Origin: Chryseobacterium paludis | GTDB taxonomy: Bacteria; Bacteroidota; Bacteroidia; Flavobacteriales; Weeksellaceae | Direction: 5' to 3' | NCBI RefSeq assembly: GCF_025403485.1 | Contig: NZ_CP099966.1 | Coordinates: forward strand, 4,067,001 to 4,131,000 | Length of the DNA: 64,000 nucleotides | Shown: piece by piece, positions 3,610 to 49,777 of the stretch | How the letters are laid out: every line of letters begins with the position of its first letter | Numbering within the stretch: the first letter of the stretch is position 1 | Translations under genes and position numbers: made by a program | The notes under the pieces: generated by a model | What the model was told of the DNA's origin: nothing | Database searches by the model: none | What the model saw: the letters and a program-made list of their open reading frames with translations, nothing else

Positions 3610-4391
3610 GGCTGTTTTTTTAAAATAATATTGATACTGGTTCCTTTGTTTTTCAAACTTTCCAAACTAAAATGAGCTCCAATGATCTCAGCTCTGTTTT
3701 TCATGTTTGTTAGCCCTATACCATTTGAGGTTATTCTGGATCTGTCAAATCCAATTCCATCATCCTGAATATTAAGTTCCCAAAGTATTTCTTCGGAAGT
3801 ATTGAGGTTAATGAAAATATTTTTGCAATTGGCATGCTTAATACTGTTTTGAATAAATTCCTGCGTGATTCTCAAAAGAACATTTTTATGCACGAATCCT
3901 AAGTCGAGCTGTTTGAAGTTATGATTGAAACTTACATTGCATCTTTTAAAAGCATTGGTATTATCAACCTCTTCCTGAATTAAAGTTACAATTTCCTTTT
4001 GGTTGATGTTGTCATCAGTCAATGTTTTTGAGAGGCTTCTTAGATCCTGTAACGATTGATTGATAATTTGTGAAACCTGTTCAATTCGTTCACTTACTTC
4101 CGGAACCTTATTTTCATACAAAAGCTGTTGAGTATAAAGACTTACAAGCGTTAACTTCTGCCCTATATTGTCATGAAGCTCACGTCCTATTTGTTGCATT
4201 GTAGCTTGTTGAATTTCTAGTTGGGTAGCCAGAAGTTCCTTTTGGTGAATCTCGTTTTTTATTTCAATTTCATTTAAATATTCTTTTTTTCTTTGCTTGT
4301 ATTTTCTGATGTATACCATAACAGCGGCTACAAACAATACAAAGAATATATTGAATAAGATAATGGTTATTAAGAGTTCTGTTTTCCCCAT
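3606..4391 (-). CDS. HisKA_3-family sensor histidine kinase with one N-terminal membrane anchor
   Basis: 261 residues. One transmembrane helix (about 8-28) is followed by a coiled coil, the DHp H-box RELHDNIGQKL (phospho-His at about residue 73) and an HATPase_c domain with N-box and G-box motifs (IQNSIKHA, DDGIGFD, GIGLTNMKNRAEI). This is the LytS/NarL-partner type of kinase. There is no periplasmic sensor domain, so input may come from the membrane protein encoded just upstream, whose reading frame overlaps this one by 22 bases. Autophosphorylation followed by transfer to the downstream regulator is the expected reaction. Confidence 0.92.
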   Translation of the reverse strand: MGKTELLITIILFNIFFVLFVAAVMVYIRKYKQRKKEYLNEIEIKNEIHQKELLATQLEIQQATMQQIGRELHDNIGQKLTLVSLYTQQLLYENKVPEVSERIEQVSQIINQSLQDLRSLSKTLTDDNINQKEIVTLIQEEVDNTNAFKRCNVSFNHNFKQLDLGFVHKNVLLRITQEFIQNSIKHANCKNIFINLNTSEEILWELNIQDDGIGFDRSRITSNGIGLTNMKNRAEIIGAHFSLESLKNKGTSINIILKKQP

Positions 4392-5017
4392 ATGAATGAA
4401 ATTGAGAATAATAAATACATAATAATTCCAGATATCAAAAAATAGTCAAAATATATATTGAAAATTCCTCTATACTCTCTGATTAAAGTCAAAAATGTCC
4501 AGAAAGGTAAAGTTCCAATATAAAATAAAGTTACACCGAGGTTGATATAAAACATTCTGTTTTTTCCAAAACTAAGAATGTTTGAAGAGTTAATCTGTTT
4601 ATAATATTCCATTACCACCAAGATCATTAGAATAAGACAACCTAAAGTGTAATTTAGAGAAAACATTATTTTATCGGTAGAAAACAGGATCTCACTTGGG
4701 ATAAATGATACTAAATATAATAAAGATAAGACAATATATAGTTTTCTGTTTTCAAATGATTTTGCGGCATATAACCAATAAAAAAATATAAATTGAATAG
4801 GAATTACAAAATAATTATAAAACGCAGCTTTATTATATTCCATAACTAAATCACCCCATTTTCCCACTGCTTCACACAAGAAAATAAAGATTAAATAGAA
4901 CATAAAGTATTTCCAATATTGATTTTTGATCTTATTGTAAGACAAAATGGATGTAAAAGCTGCTAGACCTTCTACCCAGAACATAGATTCTTGTATTACT
5001 TTTTGGAAATCAGTCAT
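4370..5017 (-). CDS. Uncharacterised polytopic membrane protein, probable sensory partner of the two-component system
   Basis: 215 residues with about six or seven hydrophobic helices separated by short loops. I do not recognise a named family. It is the first gene of the operon and overlaps the kinase start by 22 bases, a strong sign of coupled translation and joint function. The kinase lacks a sensing domain, so a role as membrane receptor or kinase modulator is a reasonable inference. Charged residues are few and lie mainly in loops (KWGDLVMEY, EYYKQINSS). No signal peptide and no catalytic motif are visible. Confidence 0.75.
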   Translation of the reverse strand: MTDFQKVIQESMFWVEGLAAFTSILSYNKIKNQYWKYFMFYLIFIFLCEAVGKWGDLVMEYNKAAFYNYFVIPIQFIFFYWLYAAKSFENRKLYIVLSLLYLVSFIPSEILFSTDKIMFSLNYTLGCLILMILVVMEYYKQINSSNILSFGKNRMFYINLGVTLFYIGTLPFWTFLTLIREYRGIFNIYFDYFLISGIIMYLLFSISFIWGKQNS

Positions 5018-5056
5018 TATGTGTACTACTATTTAAATAATTGTTTATTGAGGGCT

Positions 5057-5602
5057 TTAAAATAATTCTGACTTGGTTCCGTCAGGTGGAATTAGATTTC
5101 CGTGATTTTGTGCAAGTCCTTCTTCTTCAATAGGAGTTTCTGCATTACGGGATTTCAATGCCATCGCCATTGCGTGGCCATTAGATGCTAAAGGATTAAA
5201 ATCATAATCCAAAAGATCCCCATTTTCATCTTCTTTTTTCAAAGTGGGAACCATTACTAAAGTATGTCTTTCTGCATATTCTTTTGGAACAGTATGGTTT
5301 TCCATAATTGCCCAATTTTCAGATTTAGGATAAGCGGCATAATAAAATCTGATACCAAGATCATTATCAGTAGTTGTCGGGTCAATTTTTTTAGCTTCAG
5401 TTTCCAGGTCAGCAATGAATTTTTTCAGTTTTGGTAGATCAAACCAAATAGAGTGGGCGTCGTTCATTTCAAGATTTGAATTAATAGCTTGTAACTGATT
5501 GTTACGATAATTATTGATCAGTTCTTGAATAAAAGATGTGGTCATGGTGTTTGGAGCGCTAAGCGTTTCAATATCACCTTCGAAGATAGGTTTTGTTTCC
5601 AT
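5057..5602 (-). CDS. Uncharacterised protein of the NHGNLIPPD family (single-domain form)
   Basis: 181 residues from the ATG at 5602; a GTG six codons earlier (5620) is possible but less likely. No signal peptide or membrane segment, so cytoplasmic by sequence. The layout is a helix (LPKLKKFIADLETEAKK), a strand segment (LGIRFYYAAYP), a second strand (HTLVMVPT), and near the C-terminus NHGNLIPPDGT. The same order recurs twice in the divergent neighbour at 5877-6758, which carries the same nine-residue NHGNLIPPD. Function unknown; no catalytic site is recognised. It lies just upstream of the two-component operon on the same strand, with 39 bases between its stop and the membrane protein start. 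Confidence 0.75.
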   Translation of the reverse strand: METKPIFEGDIETLSAPNTMTTSFIQELINNYRNNQLQAINSNLEMNDAHSIWFDLPKLKKFIADLETEAKKIDPTTTDNDLGIRFYYAAYPKSENWAIMENHTVPKEYAERHTLVMVPTLKKEDENGDLLDYDFNPLASNGHAMAMALKSRNAETPIEEEGLAQNHGNLIPPDGTKSELF

Positions 5603-6820: not shown

Positions 6821-6970
6821 TTAAACACATGGATATTTTCTGAAGTCTTTGCATGTATTGTCAGAAGTACAACAAAGATTGGGTGGACAGCCGCCGCCAA
6901 TGTCACAATAGATAGGAGCCGGTCCAGCTCCAGTGATTTTCTTTAAATGATGTCTTTTTAATTTTTTCAT
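6821..6970 (-). CDS. Bacteriocin-like secreted peptide precursor, six cysteines
   Basis: 49 residues from the ATG at 6970; the longer frame from 7036 adds an unlikely 22-residue extension. The leader MKKLKRHHLKKITGAG matches in style the precursor at 45484-45690 (LKEIQGAGPIP here ITGAGPAP) and leaders cut by C39 peptidases after a Gly-Gly or Gly-Ala pair. The remaining part holds six Cys spaced C-x5-C-x4-CC-x5-C-x7-C. This C-C-CC-C-C order is that of inhibitor-cystine-knot peptides, though fold and disulfides are not proven. No transporter is adjacent; the nearest C39 exporter in the window is at 45740-47932. Function (antimicrobial, signalling or other) is unknown. Confidence 0.75.
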   Translation of the reverse strand: MKKLKRHHLKKITGAGPAPIYCDIGGGCPPNLCCTSDNTCKDFRKYPCV

Positions 6971-35157: not shown

Positions 35158-36848
35158 TTATTGTTTAATGAATTTTTCTACAACTCTCCTTTGTCCATCA
35201 GTAGAGTGAATGAGATAGTTGCCTTTTGGAAGATTTGATATATCAATTTTTTTATCCGTTAAAATAGTTCCTTTTGATACCAACTGTCCCATCATATTAA
35301 AGATTTCAAAATTGACCTCTTTATCCTCAGAATTTCTAATCGAAATAAAATTTGATGCAGGATTAGGATATATTTCAACTTTTAAAGGACTTAATGTCAT
35401 GGTCTTTGATGAAAGCGTAGTACGGCTGCTTTCTAAATATTCTATAGCAGCCTTGATATTTGGAAGAGGGCCGATTTTTGTCGTCAGATTACCACCTTGA
35501 GGTATTCCTGTACTGATAAGGATATTTCTCATTTCGGAAGGACTAAGGTACTGTCCGGTTTGTTGGAAATTAAAAGATTGTATCAGTATTGCAGCAGAAG
35601 CAACGATGGGTGTTGCTGAACTTGTTCCGTTAAAGAGAGTGTATGTTCTGTTATTGTCATTGTCATATTTAGCCCAAGAACCATAACCCGCGGCTAGAAC
35701 ATTTTGACCCCAACCCTGTACATTTACTCTTGAACCATACGTGCTGAAGCTTAATCTGGAATGTTGAGATGTATCCGAGCCGGCTCCGACAACGATCGCA
35801 CCACTATTTCCCCTTGCATTGTAAGCCGAATAAAAGGAATTATCCAGATTTTCATTTCCATTTCCTGCAGCGGCTATGATAATAATTCCTGAATCAGTTG
35901 CTGCTTTTGTCAGATCCCAGACAACATTATTATATTCAGCAAGAACATAATTGGAATTCTGTCCTCCAGTTTGCATTTCATATAAAATAATGTCTCCAGC
36001 CTGAGACGCATTTATTGAACGTGTAACAGCAGCCACTCTATTGTATGAACTTGTAGTCCATTCCAGAAAACCCTTCATTTCTGTTGCGTTATATGCTGTC
36101 CCCGAAAGTCCGATATTATCTTTTGCTGAACCAAGGATACTCATCACAGCAGTTCCGTGGTCAAGATAACTATAATAAGAACTGTTAGGATCCGTTAATG
36201 ATGAATTGGGTAAACTCCGGATTCATATTGAATCGCATTTCGGGTAACAAGCATTTCATGAGGTTTGTGGAAGCCATATTCCACATCACGGATTCTTACA
36301 TTTTGACCTGTAATTCCTCTTGACCATGCATAATTTACATTGATCCCTGGATTACCAAGTAAATAATTCTGAGAGGTTTCCAGATTTGGAGTGGCAACAA
36401 AGGTTTTGGTAAATGGAGGAGTTATAGGTTCATTGCTTAGTATAGAAGCATATTCCACTTCCGGGAACCTTTCGAAATCTCGTGCCAGCCTTACCATATT
36501 ATCATTATCTTTTATCGGGCTCTCAACCTTATAAATTCGTTTCAGCTTTTCAATGGACTCGCCTGATTTTTTATACTTTTTACTGGCTTCAATCATTTCA
36601 TTCAGTTTCTTATCACTGAAACCAAGCTCATCAACAAATGACAGTTCATTTTTTTGGACAAATTCCTTCAGGGAAGGATTCTTATTTAACACCGCATTAA
36701 TAAGGTCATTTGGATGACTGGTTTTAGAAAAACAAACATAGAGTGAATGTGATTTCGAATTTTTTTCAAGTTGAAACTGCCCTTTTCTGTTCTGTCCGAA
36801 AGATAGCATAAAGCAGAAAATCAATAAAAGAAAGATTTTTGTTTTCAT
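35158..36848 (-). pseudogene. S8 subtilisin-like serine protease with T9SS sorting domain, split by a -1 frameshift
   Basis: Two frames cover one gene. The first (36848 to about 36195) has the signal peptide, a prodomain-like region and the catalytic Asp segment VRIRDVEYGF, and then stops after ESGVYPIHH. The second frame continues with SSLTDPNSSYYSYLDHGTAVMSI, bearing the catalytic His (DHGTA). It then has the oxyanion Asn (AAAGNGN), the nucleophile Ser (FNGTSSATP) and a type A sorting domain (VEIYPNPASNFISIR... LPKGNYLIHS). The frames join if one T is restored in the ATT run near 36207, so a one-base deletion is the simplest explanation. About 563 residues when joined. As it stands no full enzyme can form, unless programmed slippage or a sequencing error is involved. 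Confidence 0.85.
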
Positions 36849-43785: not shown

Positions 43786-43859
43786 GGCGAGGTAGCTCAG
43801 TTGGTTAGAGCGCAGGATTCATAACCCTGAGGTCACGGGTTCAATTCCCGTCTTCGCTA
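43786..43859 (+). tRNA. tRNA-Met (anticodon CAT)
   Basis: 74 bases. The acceptor stem is GGCGAGG with CTTCGCT, with two G.U pairs and discriminator A. The D-arm is GCTCAGTTGGTTAGAGC. The anticodon loop is TTCATAA; the last base pair of its stem is an A-C mismatch. The T-arm is ACGGG-TTCAATT-CCCGT. CCA is not encoded. CAT could also mean tRNA-Ile2 after lysidine modification, or the initiator, but stem details favour elongator methionine. Confidence 0.9.
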
Positions 43860-43861
43860 CT

Positions 43862-44069: not shown

Positions 44070-44096
44070 AGGCCCACAATAATTTATTGTGGGCCT
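44070..44096 (-). terminator. Terminator of the peptide-export operon
   Basis: A perfect 12-bp stem AGGCCCACAATA / TATTGTGGGCCT with an ATT loop, 17 bases past the HlyD stop on the minus strand. Confidence 0.85.
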
Positions 44097-44113
44097 GTAT
44101 ATTTTAAAGATTA

Positions 44114-45412
44114 TTAACTTTGATATCCAAGTAGCTTTCTGATCTGGTAGAAGAACCTCTCTATAAGTCTTAGATCCTGAGTTACAATATCTGCGTTACC
44201 TTTAAGTTCTTTATCGAAAGTAAGTGTTCTGTTATAAGAAGTTTTCAAGCCTTTAGGTAGCACTACATCTACATAGTAATTGCCTTTGTCATCAGTAGAA
44301 AGAGAGATATTTTGAACTTTACCTTCTACAATACCATACTCCTGGAAACGGTAATTATCTAATTTGATCAATACTTTTTCCCCTGGAGTAATTTTACCTG
44401 AGTTAATAGGAGGAACGTACATTCTTCCTACCAGTTTATCTTTATTTTTAGGAAGTATAGATAGAATAGCATCACCTGTTTTTACGAACTGATTCTCTCC
44501 GAAAAACTGCTGAAAGCTAGCAATACCATCTGTTGAGGAAATAACCAGGAAATTCTGCTCCCACTGTTTCAGGGACTTTCTTAATTGTTCAAATAACTGT
44601 AAACTCTGTGAAGAATAATTGATTTTATCTTTTTCAGTATTAATGGCAGTTCCGCTTTTTGTTTTATTTAGATTGGAAATGGCTTCTTCCATCTGTGATA
44701 ATGAGATGGTTATATTTTCCAGATTTTGCTGAGCCTGAAGATATTTTATTTTTTCACCTTCAAGTTCTACGGATGCAATTACTCCTTGAGTGAAAAGATC
44801 CTGAGATCTTTGATAACTTTTCTTTGTAAGCTCATATTTTGCCTGCTCCAGGCTTTTTTGTTGTTTTGTAGTAGCAATTCTTACTCTATACTCAGAAATA
44901 CTCTGATTGGTTGCCAGGTTCTCGGGTGCGTAAGGTTGAAGCCTTGTAAAAAGATCCTGATCCTGGAATGCTTTAGCAAAATTATTGTAATCACCTTGCA
45001 GCTCTCCAAGTTTGAAATGTGAAGTCTCATTGATAGGGAAAGAAGAAAGCTGATTAGGGGCTAAGGAATCTATAATTTTTTTTAATTCCAGGACATCCTT
45101 ATAATTGGCTGCAGACTGCATAACCATAAGAACATCATTTTTTTTAACCTCCTGGTGATCTTTAATAAAGATTTTTTCGATTTTGGAATTCGTCCTTGCT
45201 TCAAGCTTTTCAGGCGGATTTTGTGATGTAACAACAATTGGTGCTGATACAAATTCGGGATACTTTATTATATAGCTCATAATTAAAATGAGGATCAGTA
45301 TAATAAATATAATGGTATTTCCCCAGCGAATCATCCAATGGGGCGGCCGTGTAAGAATATCCTGAACACTTTCTGAACGAAGTTCTATATTATCTAAAAT
45401 TTCTTTTTCCAT
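44114..45412 (-). CDS. HlyD-family membrane fusion protein for peptide export
   Basis: 432 residues. One N-terminal transmembrane helix (about 30-50), a biotinyl-lipoyl-like half (SKIEKIFIKDHQEVKKNDVLM), a long alpha-helical hairpin with coiled coil (about 120-280), then the beta-barrel (GKITPGEKVLIKL). This is the adaptor that links an ABC exporter to an outer-membrane channel. It is the last gene of the operon containing the C39 ABC transporter and two precursors. Confidence 0.92.
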   Translation of the reverse strand: MEKEILDNIELRSESVQDILTRPPHWMIRWGNTIIFIILILILIMSYIIKYPEFVSAPIVVTSQNPPEKLEARTNSKIEKIFIKDHQEVKKNDVLMVMQSAANYKDVLELKKIIDSLAPNQLSSFPINETSHFKLGELQGDYNNFAKAFQDQDLFTRLQPYAPENLATNQSISEYRVRIATTKQQKSLEQAKYELTKKSYQRSQDLFTQGVIASVELEGEKIKYLQAQQNLENITISLSQMEEAISNLNKTKSGTAINTEKDKINYSSQSLQLFEQLRKSLKQWEQNFLVISSTDGIASFQQFFGENQFVKTGDAILSILPKNKDKLVGRMYVPPINSGKITPGEKVLIKLDNYRFQEYGIVEGKVQNISLSTDDKGNYYVDVVLPKGLKTSYNRTLTFDKELKGNADIVTQDLRLIERFFYQIRKLLGYQS

Positions 45413-45435
45413 ACAAGAATAAACAATTGAAAATA

Positions 45436-45458
45436 AAAATCCTCAATTTGAGGATTTT
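45436..45458 (-). terminator. Hairpin with T-run after the 45484-45690 precursor gene
   Basis: AAAATCCTCA / TGAGGATTTT with an ATT loop; on the minus strand it runs into TTTTTATTTTC. It lies between the precursor and HlyD and may end part of the transcripts. Confidence 0.6.
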
Positions 45459-45483
45459 GGCTAATCTCTAAATAATTAAATTA

Positions 45484-45690
45484 TTATAAAGGTAGTTTGT
45501 AATCACATTTTGGGTCATTACCCATCTCAACACCTGGAATTACTTCTCCTCCCGGACAGTATTGATTGCAAGCATTCCATACCTTGTTGACTCCGATGAT
45601 ACAAAAACAGTTACAAGGATAAGCTGGAATTGGTCCTGCACCTTGAATTTCTTTTAAGTTTTGTCTTTTGATTTTCTTTAAATCTTTCAT
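45484..45690 (-). CDS. Bacteriocin-like peptide precursor with GAGP leader
   Basis: 68 residues. Leader MKDLKKIKRQNLKEIQGAGPIP, with a Gly-Ala site and helical basic N-terminus typical of C39-peptidase substrates; the core (about 46 residues) has six Cys, seen as PCNCFC, NACNQYC and PKCDY. It sits between the C39 ABC transporter and HlyD. Even Cys number and the disulfide-forming enzyme in the operon suggest an oxidised, secreted product. The activity is unknown. Confidence 0.8.
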   Translation of the reverse strand: MKDLKKIKRQNLKEIQGAGPIPAYPCNCFCIIGVNKVWNACNQYCPGGEVIPGVEMGNDPKCDYKLPL

Positions 45691-45739
45691 AATGAATATT
45701 TTTTATGATTAGTATAGTGAAGTTAATGAAAAAAATAAA

Positions 45740-47932
45740 TTAACTTCCAAGCTCCAGTTGATTTTTTACAAGTCTGTAATACTCACCTCTTAGCGCCACT
45801 AATTCCGCATGATTTCCTTCTTCCACTACTTTTCCTTTATCAAGGACAATGATTTTATCGGCATGTTTCACTGTGGAAAGTCTGTGTGCAATAACAATTG
45901 CTGTTTTTCCTTTGAAAAACTGTTCCAGATTTTCCATAATAACTTTTTCATTGTTTGCATCCAAAGCAGAAGTGGCTTCGTCAAAGAAGATGTACTCCGG
46001 TGATTTATAGACCGCTCTTGCTATAAAGAGTCTTTGTTTTTGTCCACCACTTACACCAACACCTTCGTTTCCTATTTTAGTATTGTAGCTTAACGGAAGC
46101 TCTTCAATAAAATCTTTTATATTCGCAATTTCTACTGCCTTTCGTAGTTTTTGTTTGTCTACATAATCTTCTCCTATGGCGATATTGTTCGCAATAGTAT
46201 CATTGAATACATATCCTTCCTGCATTACCACACCACAATGATCTCTCCAGAACCTTGGTGAAACATTTTTCAGTTTGGTACTTCCGATTTTAATATCACC
46301 TTTATTGGGTTCATAAAACTTCATTAAAAGCTTTAGTAAAGTTGTTTTACCACTTCCACTGGCTCCAACAATAGCAGTGGTTTTTTGATAGGGAATACTT
46401 AGACTTAAACTTTCAAAAACATTAACATCAGAACCTATATATCTGAAAGAAAGATCCTCAATTTCTATGTCTTTTTCTGGAAGCTCAGAAACATACTGTT
46501 CATCTTTGTTTTCTTCATCATCTTTATCGTGTATTTCCCCTAATCTTTCAAGTGAGATTTTAGCATCCTGAGTTTGTTTAATAAAATCAATAAGCTGTAA
46601 CAAAGGGCTGTTCAGTTGTCCTATAATGTATTGTACTGAAAGCATCATACCCAGAGTTAGATTTCCATCTAAAACTAATTTAGCGGAAAGGAAACTTACG
46701 AGAATGTCCTTCATCTGATTAATGAAATTACCCCCAACAGATTGCCATTGTTCTAATGATAATGATTTAATCCTGATTTTAAACAATTTAACCTGCAAAA
46801 ATTCCCAGTCCCAACGTTTTTGCTTTTCAGCATTATGCATTTTTATTTCCTGCATTCCGTTGATTAATTCAATTACTTTGCTCTGCTCCTGGGAAACTTG
46901 GGAAAATCTTTTATAGTCAAGCTCTTTTCTTTTTGCTAAAAAGAAAGTGATCCATCCGATATATAAAATAGCACCTACTAAATAAACAATAAATAATCTG
47001 TAATCATACATTAACAGTACGATACTGAAAATAATTAAATTAACAAGTGAGAATAATGTATTCAGAGAGGAATTGGTAAGAAGTTGTTCAATTCTATGAT
47101 GATCATTAATTCTCTGCATGATATCACCCGTCATTCTTGTATCAAAGAAACTGATAGGAAGTTTCATAAGCTTGATGAAAAAATCGGAGATAATAGAAAT
47201 GTTAATCCTTGCCGAAAGATGAAGTAAAATCCAGCTTCGAATGACTTCAATACCCATCCTTCCAAGGAAAAGCATTATCTGAGCCAGTAAGACAAGATAA
47301 ATGAAATGTAAATCCTGGTTTTGGATTCCGACATCTACAATACTTTGAGTAAGGAAAGGAAATATGAGGGATAGTAAACTTCCTGCTAAAAGTCCTACTG
47401 CCAGTTGAATGACCAGTGATTTATATTTTAATAGATATTTAGAGAGAAAAGAAAAGCTTGCCTTACTTTCTTTATCATCAAATTCCGTCTGAAAGAAAGC
47501 AGGAGTAGTTTCTAGGATAAGAACAATTCCCTCTTCTGTCTTTTCAGTGGCATTTTCACCTATCCATAATTTTATAAATTCATCTCTGCTGTAGGTTATT
47601 AATCCATAACTGGGATCCGAGATGAAAACCTTATTATTCTTGTCGATCTTGTAAACAACCACAAAGTGATTTTTGTTCCAATGCACGATGCATGGAAAAG
47701 GAACTTCTTCAGCAAGTGTATTGAAATCGACCTGGACTCCTAATGAACGGAATCCTAAGTCTTCAGCAGCATCGCTTAGCCCAAGCAAACTACTCCCTTC
47801 ACGAGTTGTTTCTGAAAGACTGCGTATTTGCTGTAATGATATACTCTTACCATAATGTTTACTAACTATTCTAAGACATGTAGGGCCACAATCTTTGGCA
47901 TCCGGCTGCCTGTAAAAAGGAAATTTCTTCAA
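45740..47932 (-). CDS. Peptidase-containing ABC transporter (C39, PCAT)
   Basis: 730 residues. The C39 peptidase domain (1 to about 130) has the catalytic Cys in KDCGPTCLRIV, the His in HWNKNHFVVVYK and the Asp in SDPSYG. Six transmembrane helices (about 160-450) follow, then an ABC ATPase domain with Walker A GASGSGKTT, signature VSGGQKQR and Walker B IFFDEATSALD. It cuts leader peptides after Gly-Gly-like sites and exports the core. Placed between the two precursor genes on the minus strand. Confidence 0.96.
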   Translation of the reverse strand: MKKFPFYRQPDAKDCGPTCLRIVSKHYGKSISLQQIRSLSETTREGSSLLGLSDAAEDLGFRSLGVQVDFNTLAEEVPFPCIVHWNKNHFVVVYKIDKNNKVFISDPSYGLITYSRDEFIKLWIGENATEKTEEGIVLILETTPAFFQTEFDDKESKASFSFLSKYLLKYKSLVIQLAVGLLAGSLLSLIFPFLTQSIVDVGIQNQDLHFIYLVLLAQIMLFLGRMGIEVIRSWILLHLSARINISIISDFFIKLMKLPISFFDTRMTGDIMQRINDHHRIEQLLTNSSLNTLFSLVNLIIFSIVLLMYDYRLFIVYLVGAILYIGWITFFLAKRKELDYKRFSQVSQEQSKVIELINGMQEIKMHNAEKQKRWDWEFLQVKLFKIRIKSLSLEQWQSVGGNFINQMKDILVSFLSAKLVLDGNLTLGMMLSVQYIIGQLNSPLLQLIDFIKQTQDAKISLERLGEIHDKDDEENKDEQYVSELPEKDIEIEDLSFRYIGSDVNVFESLSLSIPYQKTTAIVGASGSGKTTLLKLLMKFYEPNKGDIKIGSTKLKNVSPRFWRDHCGVVMQEGYVFNDTIANNIAIGEDYVDKQKLRKAVEIANIKDFIEELPLSYNTKIGNEGVGVSGGQKQRLFIARAVYKSPEYIFFDEATSALDANNEKVIMENLEQFFKGKTAIVIAHRLSTVKHADKIIVLDKGKVVEEGNHAELVALRGEYYRLVKNQLELGS

Positions 47933-47950
47933 AATTTATAATCATTTAAA

Positions 47951-47973
47951 AATGTCGTCAAATAGACGACATT
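47951..47973 (-). terminator. Hairpin between the 48005-48175 precursor and the ABC transporter
   Basis: AATGTCGTC / GACGACATT with an AAATA loop and a short T-rich tail on the minus strand. Likely a partial terminator that keeps precursor mRNA more abundant than transporter mRNA. Confidence 0.55.
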
Positions 47974-48004
47974 CTTTATTAATATTTTTTAATATCGACT
48001 TTCA

Positions 48005-48175
48005 TTAAAGCCCACAACTATCATCAATGATTAAGTATCTTGCTGGTAAAATATTATAAATCTCTACAGGACAATAGGTATGACATAGAGCTGCTGTCTT
48101 AAGAAGCGGACCTGTTATCAGACCGCTACTTACACTTCTAAAGTTCTGATGTGAAAGTTTTTTTAAATTTTCCAT
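48005..48175 (-). CDS. Short peptide precursor missed by length cut-off
   Basis: 56 residues from the ATG at 48175. The basic N-terminus MENLKKLSHQNFRSVSSGLI resembles the leaders of the other two precursors (LKKL..Q/H..LK style); the following core LLKTAALCHTYCPVEIYN has three Cys in total with a final one in DDSCGL. It has a glycine-containing site ITG near residue 22 instead of GAG. It sits in the operon between the VKOR-thioredoxin gene and the C39 transporter. Confidence 0.65.
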   Translation of the reverse strand: MENLKKLSHQNFRSVSSGLITGPLLKTAALCHTYCPVEIYNILPARYLIIDDSCGL

Positions 48176-48271
48176 GGCAATAGTTTTGATACCTTTAGCT
48201 TTCTGTGGTTTTCAGGGGTACTTTAATTTTTTTCCTAAATTAGTGAATTCTGTTAAATTATTGTAACTATT

Positions 48272-49777
48272 TTAAATTTCTTCATCTTCAATTAATTCAT
48301 CAATAAAATAATGAATGTCTTCGCGGTCATATTTATCAGGAAATTGGAATCCGTTAATGATAAAGATTGGAGTAAAGTTTAATCCAGCATCTGCATTTTC
48401 TAGTGACATTAAATTAAGGGGGTTAAGATCTTCTAACTGACCGTTTGATCCCGCTATTTCTCTGATTTGCTTTTCATCTTTATTTTCAAACCAGGTTTCA
48501 ATTGCTTTTAAAAACTCACTTTCATGTTTATTTTTATAAATATTTGTGAAATCTGATAGAAGACCTGTAGATTTTTCATTTGATTTTTCTGAAAAATAAT
48601 TAAATCGTAGTTGTGCAGAAAGTTCATTAGGGTATTTTTTTAACAAATCTTCCAGGATCTCATGAGCACCCTTACAAAAGCCACAATATGGATTTGAAAC
48701 AACGGAAATACGAAGTTTAGCATCTTTATTTCCCAATGAAAAAGTTTGGCTGTCAGTAAAAGTAATTCTTTCATTTTGAACAAGCTCCCTTTTGAATAGG
48801 TCATAATTTCTTTTAAATCTCAAGTTTTTAGCATTTGATTTTTGAAGACTTTCCTTATCTGTAAGAATAGTATTGAAATAAGAAACTGCGAAGAAGATGA
48901 TTCCCCATAATAATAAGCTTAATATAGCAATGTTTGTATTGAAATAGAAGTTTTCAAAAAAGGCTAATGTTATAATGAGCTGTGCTATTAAGATTGAAAT
49001 GATCAGAAGGCATACACGACAAAATGTTTTTTCGACGAAAGCTTGTATATAGACAGAATAACCTATGGCAATCAATGAAACGATTGTGAAACCTTTTATT
49101 ACATAACCTGTAGCGGGTAAGAACAGTCCTAATACAGCAATTCCTATGAAATAGATTAGTGAGAAATCAGAAAATTTCAGCCCTAGAATACTTGTTTTAT
49201 CTTCATTAATAATTTTATTACATGAATTGATGGTTTGATTTGCAGCGGTATCACCACATATACTTCCTATAACAGCTGAAGTGTTTCCAAATTTCTGATT
49301 AAAAATTTCTAAAGAAATATAAACTCCAACTACAGACAATAAATTGAATAGGATCGTGTACCATGAATAATTTATAATAGAGTAAAGAAGAATTGTTCCT
49401 AAAATTGCATATATGAAAGGTTTGTAATTAGATATCTTCTGTTCCGCATTCACGGTTTTTTCAAATAGTAAAACGAAATCAGTTGCATTTTTATAAAGCT
49501 CTTCTTTATTTAAAGTTTTAGACTTATCAGAATAAATAGAATATTGAGCTCCCGTTTTCTTAACTAAAGAGAAAGAATTGTCGACTATTGCAATGAATTC
49601 TTCGGGAAGTTCATCCCAATATTCCTTATCCAATTCGTAAGCATCATTTTTTACGCCCAAAAAGTTAAGAGTATCGCTAAAAGCTAATGCAGATGGGTAG
49701 TTAGGGTGTGAATTGAATTGGAAAAGAAACTCCTGTTTGTCTAGTTTCAAGTAGCTAATTAGTTTATCTAAGGTCAT
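48272..49777 (-). CDS. VKOR-thioredoxin fusion with a degenerate C39-like N-terminal domain
   Basis: 501 residues. Residues 1 to about 110 resemble a C39 peptidase fold (SHPNYPSALAFSDTLNFLG) without the catalytic Cys. A VKOR domain with several membrane helices follows (about 115-290), including a Cys pair in SICGDTAANQTINSC and the CxxC in KTFCRVC. The C-terminal thioredoxin domain (about 340-500) has the active site CGFC. Such fusions make and shuffle disulfides across the inner membrane, coupled to quinone. It is the first gene of the peptide operon, so the likely clients are the precursors. Confidence 0.88.
   Translation of the reverse strand: MTLDKLISYLKLDKQEFLFQFNSHPNYPSALAFSDTLNFLGVKNDAYELDKEYWDELPEEFIAIVDNSFSLVKKTGAQYSIYSDKSKTLNKEELYKNATDFVLLFEKTVNAEQKISNYKPFIYAILGTILLYSIINYSWYTILFNLLSVVGVYISLEIFNQKFGNTSAVIGSICGDTAANQTINSCNKIINEDKTSILGLKFSDFSLIYFIGIAVLGLFLPATGYVIKGFTIVSLIAIGYSVYIQAFVEKTFCRVCLLIISILIAQLIITLAFFENFYFNTNIAILSLLLWGIIFFAVSYFNTILTDKESLQKSNAKNLRFKRNYDLFKRELVQNERITFTDSQTFSLGNKDAKLRISVVSNPYCGFCKGAHEILEDLLKKYPNELSAQLRFNYFSEKSNEKSTGLLSDFTNIYKNKHESEFLKAIETWFENKDEKQIREIAGSNGQLEDLNPLNLMSLENADAGLNFTPIFIINGFQFPDKYDREDIHYFIDELIEDEEI

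What the first reader, a model, noticed from the sequence alone, without database searches (positions are those of the whole stretch)
44070..49777. Compact peptide-maturation and export island with disulfide machinery
Seen: one minus-strand run holds a VKOR-thioredoxin protein with two CxxC sites, a C39 peptidase ABC transporter with full triad, an HlyD adaptor and two short precursors (one with six Cys). Known: C39 transporters cut leaders and export bacteriocins, and VKOR-thioredoxin fusions make disulfides. Inference: this is a self-contained system for a disulfide-stabilised secreted peptide. No lanthipeptide, graspetide or radical SAM enzyme is present, so the peptide may be modified only by cleavage and oxidation.
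Basis: partly seen in the sequence, partly recalled or inferred. Interest (0 to 1): 0.75.

Follow-up and report, generated by a model that had tools for sequence, protein, structure and literature searches.

The report
Hub exporter for many disulfide peptides
This gene cluster in a Chryseobacterium genome looks like the cutting, export and disulfide-making station for dozens of small cysteine-rich peptides whose genes are scattered over the chromosome, so it is probably a shared hub for a large and mostly unstudied set of secreted mini-proteins and not one small peptide factory.

Summary
The five genes are real and correctly placed: a peptidase-ABC exporter with an intact C39 triad, an HlyD adaptor, a VKOR-DsbA fusion with six invariant cysteines, and two small precursors. 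"Disulfide-stabilised secreted peptide" is well supported; "self-contained island" is not. The genome holds 57 leader-plus-core precursors (35 leader hits over the curated cut-off), nearly all far from the locus; 54 of 57 cores have an even, non-zero cysteine count. Over all loci held, 86 of 93 precursor clusters are even, with no even excess in background ORFs. In 60 same-genus genomes such leaders occur in 56 (median 25 over all 60), each time with this exporter and a VKOR orthologue (split in one). In 20 of them it is the only exporter of its kind detected. P2 is conserved under strong purifying selection; P1 is a degenerate copy. Exporters 79-94% identical sit elsewhere beside graspetide or lanthipeptide enzymes instead of VKOR, so the exporter looks like a chassis with exchangeable maturation modules. 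Closest known: bacteroidetocin loci; NCBI already models the leader. Cleavage, oxidation, hub use by the dispersed precursors and activity are untested. New variant of a known kind.

The parts
48272..49777 (-). VKOR-DsbA fusion, 501 aa: N-terminal C39-like region without catalytic Cys/His (about 25-100), VKOR core (about 138-279), DsbA/ScsC-like domain (335-499)
48005..48175 (-). P1, 56-aa degenerate precursor (no GG, 3 Cys)
   Evidence: 13.5 bits to NF047798, cut-off 23.5; a homologue with GG and six Cys exists in genome G221, 54% identical; dN 0.405
47951..47973 (.). hairpin between P1 and the exporter gene
   Evidence: terminator scan, scored on the + strand only
45740..47932 (-). C39 peptidase-ABC exporter (hub), 730 aa, TTG start
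   Evidence: Pfam; Q9, C15, H89, D106 invariant in 15 aligned sequences; near full-length match to PCAT1 4ry2 and ComA 8hf4
45484..45690 (-). P2, 68-aa precursor; leader ends IQGAG; six Cys
   Evidence: 18 aligned sequences with all six Cys invariant; dN/dS 0.03-0.06 with dS near saturation; NF047798 22.4 bits, 23.6 bits
45436..45458 (-). terminator-like hairpin between P2 and the HlyD gene
44114..45412 (-). HlyD-type periplasmic adaptor, 432 aa
   Evidence: HlyD_3 1.7e-10; TIGR01843 3e-28, below its cut-off
44070..44096 (.). strong bidirectional terminator-like hairpin closing the block
6821..6970 (-). third precursor of the same type in the window, 49 aa, six Cys, about 37 kb from the locus
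   Evidence: leader hit 17.5 bits, below the cut-off, sequence, coordinates

Best explanation
The locus is the shared processing, export and oxidation hub for a large dispersed peptidome. Small precursors carry a 15-25 residue leader of the type MKNLKKLSRxxLKxIxGG and a Cys-rich core. The C39 domain binds the leader and cuts after GG/GA; the ABC part exports the core with HlyD and an outer-membrane channel encoded elsewhere; the VKOR-DsbA fusion takes electrons from the core cysteines through C365/C368, C174/C186 and C253/C256 to a quinone and so makes the disulfides. Shown here: gene content, triad, conservation of the cysteine relay, leader and core conservation, even cysteine counts, co-occurrence. 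Inferred: cleavage, export route, oxidation and its electron path (by analogy to known VKOR, recalled), and that the dispersed precursors use this hub. The products are most likely bacteriocin-like or signalling mini-proteins; which of these is open.
For: Own genome: 65 leader hits at E<=10, 35 over cut-off, two C39-ABC proteins; of 61 hits inspected 57 read as leader plus core, 54 of 57 with 2, 4, 6 or 8 core Cys and no Cys in a leader. All loci then held: 238 distinct precursors in 93 clusters, 86 even and 7 odd (binomial p 2e-18); 12,670 background ORFs, with 3 or more Cys: 671 even, 1397 odd; Cys 12.7% of core residues versus 2.9%. Genus, 60 genomes: leaders in 56, all 56 with exporter (>=88% identity) and VKOR orthologue (split in G038); neither of the two genomes lacking the exporter and none of the three lacking the VKOR orthologue has leaders (Fisher 0.003 and 1e-4). 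In 20 of 60 genomes this exporter is the only match to it at E<=1e-100, with 6-42 leaders. Family, 197 genomes: VKOR and leader together in 58, VKOR alone 3, leader alone 6, neither 130; among 71 exporter genomes leaders occur in 58 of 61 with VKOR and 1 of 10 without. Phylum: match to the fusion in 33 of 296 genomes; of 32 examined, 25 have a C39-ABC in the held flank, 2 partial, 4 only Cys-rich GG peptides, 1 none. Control: at E<=1e-3 the leader model rings in 0 of 14 well-known genomes.
Against: At E<=10 the leader model also rings in 8 of 14 control genomes, never over its cut-off, so the 30 hits below cut-off rest on my reading of the sequences. 17 of 74 non-redundant VKOR+exporter loci have no precursor nearby by my pattern. 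G029 has exporter and VKOR but no leader hit. Six family genomes have leader hits without a VKOR match, three VKOR genomes have no leader hit. A few counted VKOR copies are split or short (G038, G205, G236). Fisher tests ignore relatedness; the tree-based paired test is underpowered: on average 4.3 of 5 pairs agree, none disagree, median p 0.125. Seven odd clusters exist, and some cores of other genera have 5 or 7 Cys. A continuous HlyD/outer-membrane duct would bypass the periplasm where VKOR should act; how core and oxidase meet is unsolved. No expression or product data; no clear regulon motif upstream of the precursors.
Confidence: 0.72

Rival explanations
1. The locus serves only its own precursors (P2, formerly P1); the dispersed precursors are handled by the second C39 exporter or by other proteases.
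For: A second C39-ABC exists at 4660536-4662734. P2 is specifically conserved between exporter and HlyD in a number of loci.
Against: The second exporter is 48% identical and such second copies are not general: in 20 of 60 genus genomes the hub is the only match at E<=1e-100 (18 candidates scored per genome), and they still carry 6-42 leaders. Local and dispersed leaders share the same motif. Leaders are absent in G011, whose only match is not the hub, and in G057, which has none.
Confidence: 0.15
2. The VKOR-DsbA fusion is general periplasmic disulfide machinery and is beside the exporter by coincidence.
For: VKOR-thioredoxin fusions are general oxidases in other bacteria (recalled, no call).
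Against: It is patchy (61 of 197 family genomes at E<=1e-60, 33 of 296 phylum genomes at E<=1e-10) and tracks leader peptides; 25 of 32 phylum loci examined lie near a C39-ABC. 21 of 26 exporter loci without it have matches to other maturases.
Confidence: 0.1
3. The cores are cross-linked by another enzyme acting in trans (for example thioether, lactone or other RiPP chemistry), not by plain disulfides.
For: The genome has one LanB and two ATP-grasp proteins; L011 has a leader-type 8-Cys precursor beside ATP-grasp and SPASM matches.
Against: Even Cys counts fit Cys-Cys pairing and are not expected for Cys-Ser/Thr links; no maturase other than VKOR is seen in the window locus, and 67 of 104 exporter loci have VKOR alone among the four types looked for.
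Confidence: 0.1

Closest known systems
Bacteroidetocin loci of Bacteroidales (PMC6671954, passages read)
   Same: GG-leader peptide with four Cys, neighbouring thiol oxidoreductase and C39-type ABC peptidase/transporter; that paper supports leader cleavage and disulfides with blots and mass spectrometry
   Different: Four-gene regions with a 5-TM protein there; here HlyD, a VKOR-DsbA fusion, many unrelated core families, and dozens of precursors dispersed over the chromosome. Core similarity and the family of their oxidoreductase were not tested
NCBIfam NF047798 leader_Chryseo, 'bacteriocin-like protein'
   Same: The same leader; one of six P2 relatives carries this product name
   Different: It is an 18-position leader model; I saw only its name and length, not its documentation
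Peptidase-containing ABC transporters (PCAT1 4ry2, ComA 8hf4)
   Same: Near full-length homology and C39 triad
   Different: Those are Gram-positive and have no VKOR partner (recalled)
Grasp-with-spasm graspetide loci (TIGR04192/TIGR04193; PMC8939145, passages read)
   Same: Close homologues of exporter and HlyD; that paper lists C39-ABC and HlyD as common ATP-grasp neighbours and traces chryseoviridin loci in Chryseobacterium
   Different: ATP-grasp and SPASM enzymes instead of VKOR; none in the window locus
Synechococcus VKOR-thioredoxin fusion
   Different: Here an extra N-terminal C39-like region and a DsbA/ScsC-type domain

Membership tests
Peptidase-containing ABC transporter (C39) | C39 domain with Cys-His-Asp triad and oxyanion Gln | tested here: met
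   Q9, C15, H89, D106 invariant in 15 aligned sequences; residue roles recalled
Peptidase-containing ABC transporter (C39) | ABC membrane and ATPase domains in the same chain | tested here: met
   match to 4ry2 over residues 2-724
Peptidase-containing ABC transporter (C39) | Cleaves a double-glycine leader | not testable with these tools
   needs purified protein and peptide
NF047798 leader_Chryseo precursor | P2 reaches the curated cut-off of 23.5 bits | tested here: inconclusive
   22.4 bits as protein, 23.6 bits in the genome search
NF047798 leader_Chryseo precursor | P1 reaches the cut-off | tested here: not met
   13.5 and 13.7 bits
VKOR-thioredoxin oxidase | VKOR fold with loop Cys pair and CxxC, linked thioredoxin-fold domain with CxxC and cis-Pro loop | tested here: met
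   invariant Cys and T469-P470; folds
C39 peptidase (N-terminal region of the VKOR fusion) | Catalytic Cys and His | tested here: not met
   Pfam match starts after the Cys region (profile 46-131); profile alignment covers 75 columns without the Cys and with no His at the H89 column; homology itself inconclusive (E 0.0017, probability 16%)
Bacteroidetocin system | GG-type-leader Cys peptide, C39-ABC and thiol oxidoreductase together | tested here: met
Bacteroidetocin system | 5-TM protein gene in the locus | tested here: not met
   besides the named genes no minus-strand ORF of 60 aa or more lies in 44114-49777
Bacteroidetocin system | Core sequence similarity and anti-Bacteroidales activity | not tested
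   bacteroidetocin sequences were not fetched
Graspetide or lanthipeptide cluster | ATP-grasp, SPASM or LanB/LanC enzyme in the locus | tested here: not met
   none among the locus proteins; enzymes exist elsewhere in the genome

The most novel reading that the evidence does not exclude
Bacteroidota encode a widespread modular secretion chassis: one conserved C39-ABC/HlyD exporter to which either an oxidative-folding module (VKOR-DsbA with a catalytically dead C39-like domain that docks substrate or exporter), a graspetide module or a lanthipeptide module is plugged in. In the oxidative form a single hub services tens of unrelated disulfide-rich mini-proteins per genome, dispersed as orphan genes: a bacterial counterpart of venom- or defensin-like arsenals.
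Probability: 0.45. Interest if true: 0.78.

Novelty: new variant of a known kind. Interest (0 to 1): 0.6.

Why it matters
If right, it gives a producer, a cleavage rule and a folding enzyme for a very large set of small ORFs without known function (1,408 leader hits in 60 same-genus genomes), and one gene deletion would test many of them at once. It also suggests that one exporter can be re-used with different peptide chemistries, which matters for genome mining: methods that need precursor and exporter in one cluster would miss most of these precursors.

Tried and rejected
Self-contained island: rejected. P1 as a normal second precursor: rejected as degenerate; its near-identical strain L001 shows the same state. 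Fold of P2: AlphaFold model unusable (mean pLDDT 45.5). Common promoter or regulon motif upstream of the precursors: in 61 upstream regions (two of them not real precursors) 13 TAnnTTTG against 6.6 in base-shuffled copies, the two-part promoter in 2 against 0.7; A-rich words such as AACTAAA are enriched (16 against 3.1) but look like ordinary A-rich start regions. Sigma-70-like promoters in the locus: 30 found against 27.9 in shuffles, no signal. N-terminal region of the VKOR fusion as a working peptidase: rejected, no Cys or His; no fold match was listed for this part, which was barely tested, and the whole model has pTM 0.44, so domain placement is unsure. Papers: ten searches; in the rows listed (1 to 20 per search) I saw no paper on this system or on VKOR with C39 export. 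The held library lacks most subscription journals. PMC10214503 (Chryseobacterium named in the text, a DUF692-modified RiPP) was seen only as a listing. Neighbours of exporter loci: ten proteins scanned with Pfam and ten with NCBIfam, overlapping sets from six loci; the wider count of maturases rests on tblastn with seven representatives.
Full report
OBSERVATION. The window lies in a 5.05-Mb single-contig genome; its closest named matches for the exporter are Chryseobacterium, one of them near identical (L001). The minus-strand run 49777-44114 encodes a VKOR-DsbA fusion, a 56-aa ORF (P1), a C39-ABC exporter with a TTG start, a 68-aa ORF (P2) and an HlyD adaptor, and is followed by a strong hairpin at 44070-44096. 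A terminator-like hairpin follows P2 (45458-45436), and a hairpin lies between P1 and the exporter gene. The scan found 6 terminator-like sites against 2.9 (sd 1.8) in shuffles. A tRNA-Met lies beyond, on the + strand, at 43786-43860.

EXPORTER. Pfam finds Peptidase_C39, ABC_membrane and ABC_tran in order. The best-scoring solved chains are P-glycoprotein types that match only the ABC part, while PCAT1 (4ry2, residues 2-724) and ComA (8hf4, 6-723) match almost the whole chain. Q9, C15, H89 and D106 are invariant in 15 aligned sequences, which include the window, a 41%-identical paralogue of the same genome and four more distant relatives. So the protease is expected to be active. Outer-membrane channel domains (PF02321) are plentiful in the genome (35 domain hits); none of the places lies in the window.

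PRECURSORS. P2 has 18 aligned sequences (window included, a few identical to each other) with every cysteine invariant; dN is 0.09-0.10 and dN/dS 0.03-0.06 with dS near saturation. P1 has no GG and three cysteines. In G221 (VKOR 86% identical) a homologue at the same place has a GG end and six cysteines; P1 dN is 0.405, about four times that of P2. P1 is therefore read as a decaying copy. An intact relative exists; nothing more is claimed.

DISPERSED PEPTIDOME. NF047798 finds 65 leader hits in the genome at E<=10, 35 over its cut-off, on both strands and over the whole chromosome. At that loose threshold 8 of 14 control genomes also ring, none over the cut-off; at E<=1e-3 none of 14 rings. Of 61 inspected, 57 read as leader plus core: 4 Cys 20, 6 Cys 31, 8 Cys 2, 2 Cys 1, 5 Cys 2, none 1, and no Cys in a leader. 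There are only two C39-ABC proteins over the Pfam cut-off. The second, 48% identical, sits beside a 443-aa protein, and I saw no HlyD-like ORF beside it by eye. Pooling all loci held at that point, own genome included: 238 distinct precursors, 93 clusters, 86 even and 7 odd; leaders held a Cys in 2 of 238; ORFs without the leader show no even excess (671 even, 1397 odd with three or more Cys). This parity is what paired cysteines predict.

CO-OCCURRENCE. In 60 genus genomes leaders (E<=1e-3) occur in 56 (median 25 over all 60, maximum 45, total 1,408), the exporter at 88% identity or more in 58 and a VKOR orthologue (58% or more) in 57, counting G038 whose copy is split; all 56 have both. G011 and G057 lack exporter, VKOR and leaders; G053 has the exporter, only a 27% VKOR match, and no leaders; G029 has both and no leaders. 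In 20 genomes the hub is the only match to the exporter at E<=1e-100, with 6-42 leaders; more distant C39 exporters could be missed. In 197 family genomes (50 of them of the genus) VKOR and leaders coincide: 58 both, 3 VKOR only, 6 leaders only, 130 neither. Outside the genus the figures are 10, 3, 6 and 128 (Fisher 2e-9), and among the 23 exporter genomes outside the genus leaders occur in 10 of 13 with VKOR and 1 of 10 without (Fisher 0.003). Thresholds were E<=1e-300 for the exporter and E<=1e-60 for VKOR; G205's VKOR is in two pieces and G236's is short. Fisher tests ignore relatedness; the tree-based paired test agrees in direction (on average 4.3 of 5 pairs, none opposite) but is underpowered (median p 0.125).

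MODULARITY. Of 104 exporter loci (60% identity or more over 600 residues, no stop; L166-L193 hand-picked), 67 have VKOR alone, 11 VKOR with other maturases, 15 ATP-grasp and SPASM matches without VKOR, 6 LanB, and 5 none, four of these with little flank on one side or both. Checks with curated models: TIGR04192 over cut-off in a Pedobacter locus (L072), TIGR04193 over cut-off in an Epilithonimonas locus (L066), LanB and LanC in L166, LanB in L071; TIGR04192 in L011 and TIGR04193 in L072 are below cut-off. On the exporter tree the VKOR state changes at least 11 times, though many inner branches are weak. Exporter loci without VKOR had a leader-type precursor in 1 of 20 cases, those with VKOR in 57 of 74.

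BREADTH. A match to the fusion is found in 33 of 296 phylum genomes; of 32 examined, 25 have a C39-ABC within the held flank (1.5-8 kb), 2 only partial matches (G462, G439), 4 only Cys-rich GG peptides (G294, G521, G335, G426), 1 nothing (G508). Other genera use other leader sequences with Cys-rich cores; parity was not counted there and several have 5 or 7 Cys.

KNOWN SYSTEMS. Bacteroidetocin loci have a GG-leader peptide with four Cys, a thiol oxidoreductase and a C39-ABC (PMC6671954, passages). PMC8939145 (passages) describes the ATP-grasp side and lists C39-ABC and HlyD as frequent neighbours. PMC10352776 (term search and passages) notes the peptidase transporters in Bacteroidales; the words VKOR, vitamin K epoxide and disulfide do not occur in its main text. 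NCBI has a leader model and the name 'bacteriocin-like protein'. The dispersed hub and the chassis with exchangeable modules were not seen in the listings of ten paper searches, named under Tried and rejected.

OPEN POINTS. Activity of the cores, the order of cleavage, export and oxidation, how a core exported through a possible continuous duct meets a periplasmic oxidase, and whether the C39-like region binds anything.

Noticed in passing
window 6821-6970, minus: A third small six-Cys precursor with the same kind of leader (ending ITGA), about 37 kb from the exporter and next to a gene that looks like clpB by eye.
   Followed up: partly
L124 (G000:C1:4252209-4253743): Tandem array of seven precursors in the same genome, six of them with a shared CP...YG core pattern.
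   Followed up: partly
L130 4534-8066: Second C39-ABC of the genome next to a 443-aa protein that looks cupin/JmjC-like by eye (no family search made); perhaps another peptide-modifying system.
   Followed up: no
G000:C1:2600916-2602886 and 2164442-2166350: One LanB and a pair of ATP-grasp proteins (below the TIGR04192 cut-off) elsewhere in the genome.
   Followed up: no
L193 (G038:C1:4128000-4141000) 3917-5421: The VKOR fusion is split into two pieces although the genome keeps 42 leader hits; could be a sequencing error or real decay.
   Followed up: no
L011 5797-11841: Mixed locus: ATP-grasp and SPASM matches, the exporter, and an 8-Cys leader-type precursor between exporter and HlyD, without a VKOR match in the DNA held.
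   Followed up: partly
window 35158-36848, minus: Two adjacent ORFs look by eye like the halves of one subtilase-like secreted protease, apparently interrupted.
   Followed up: no
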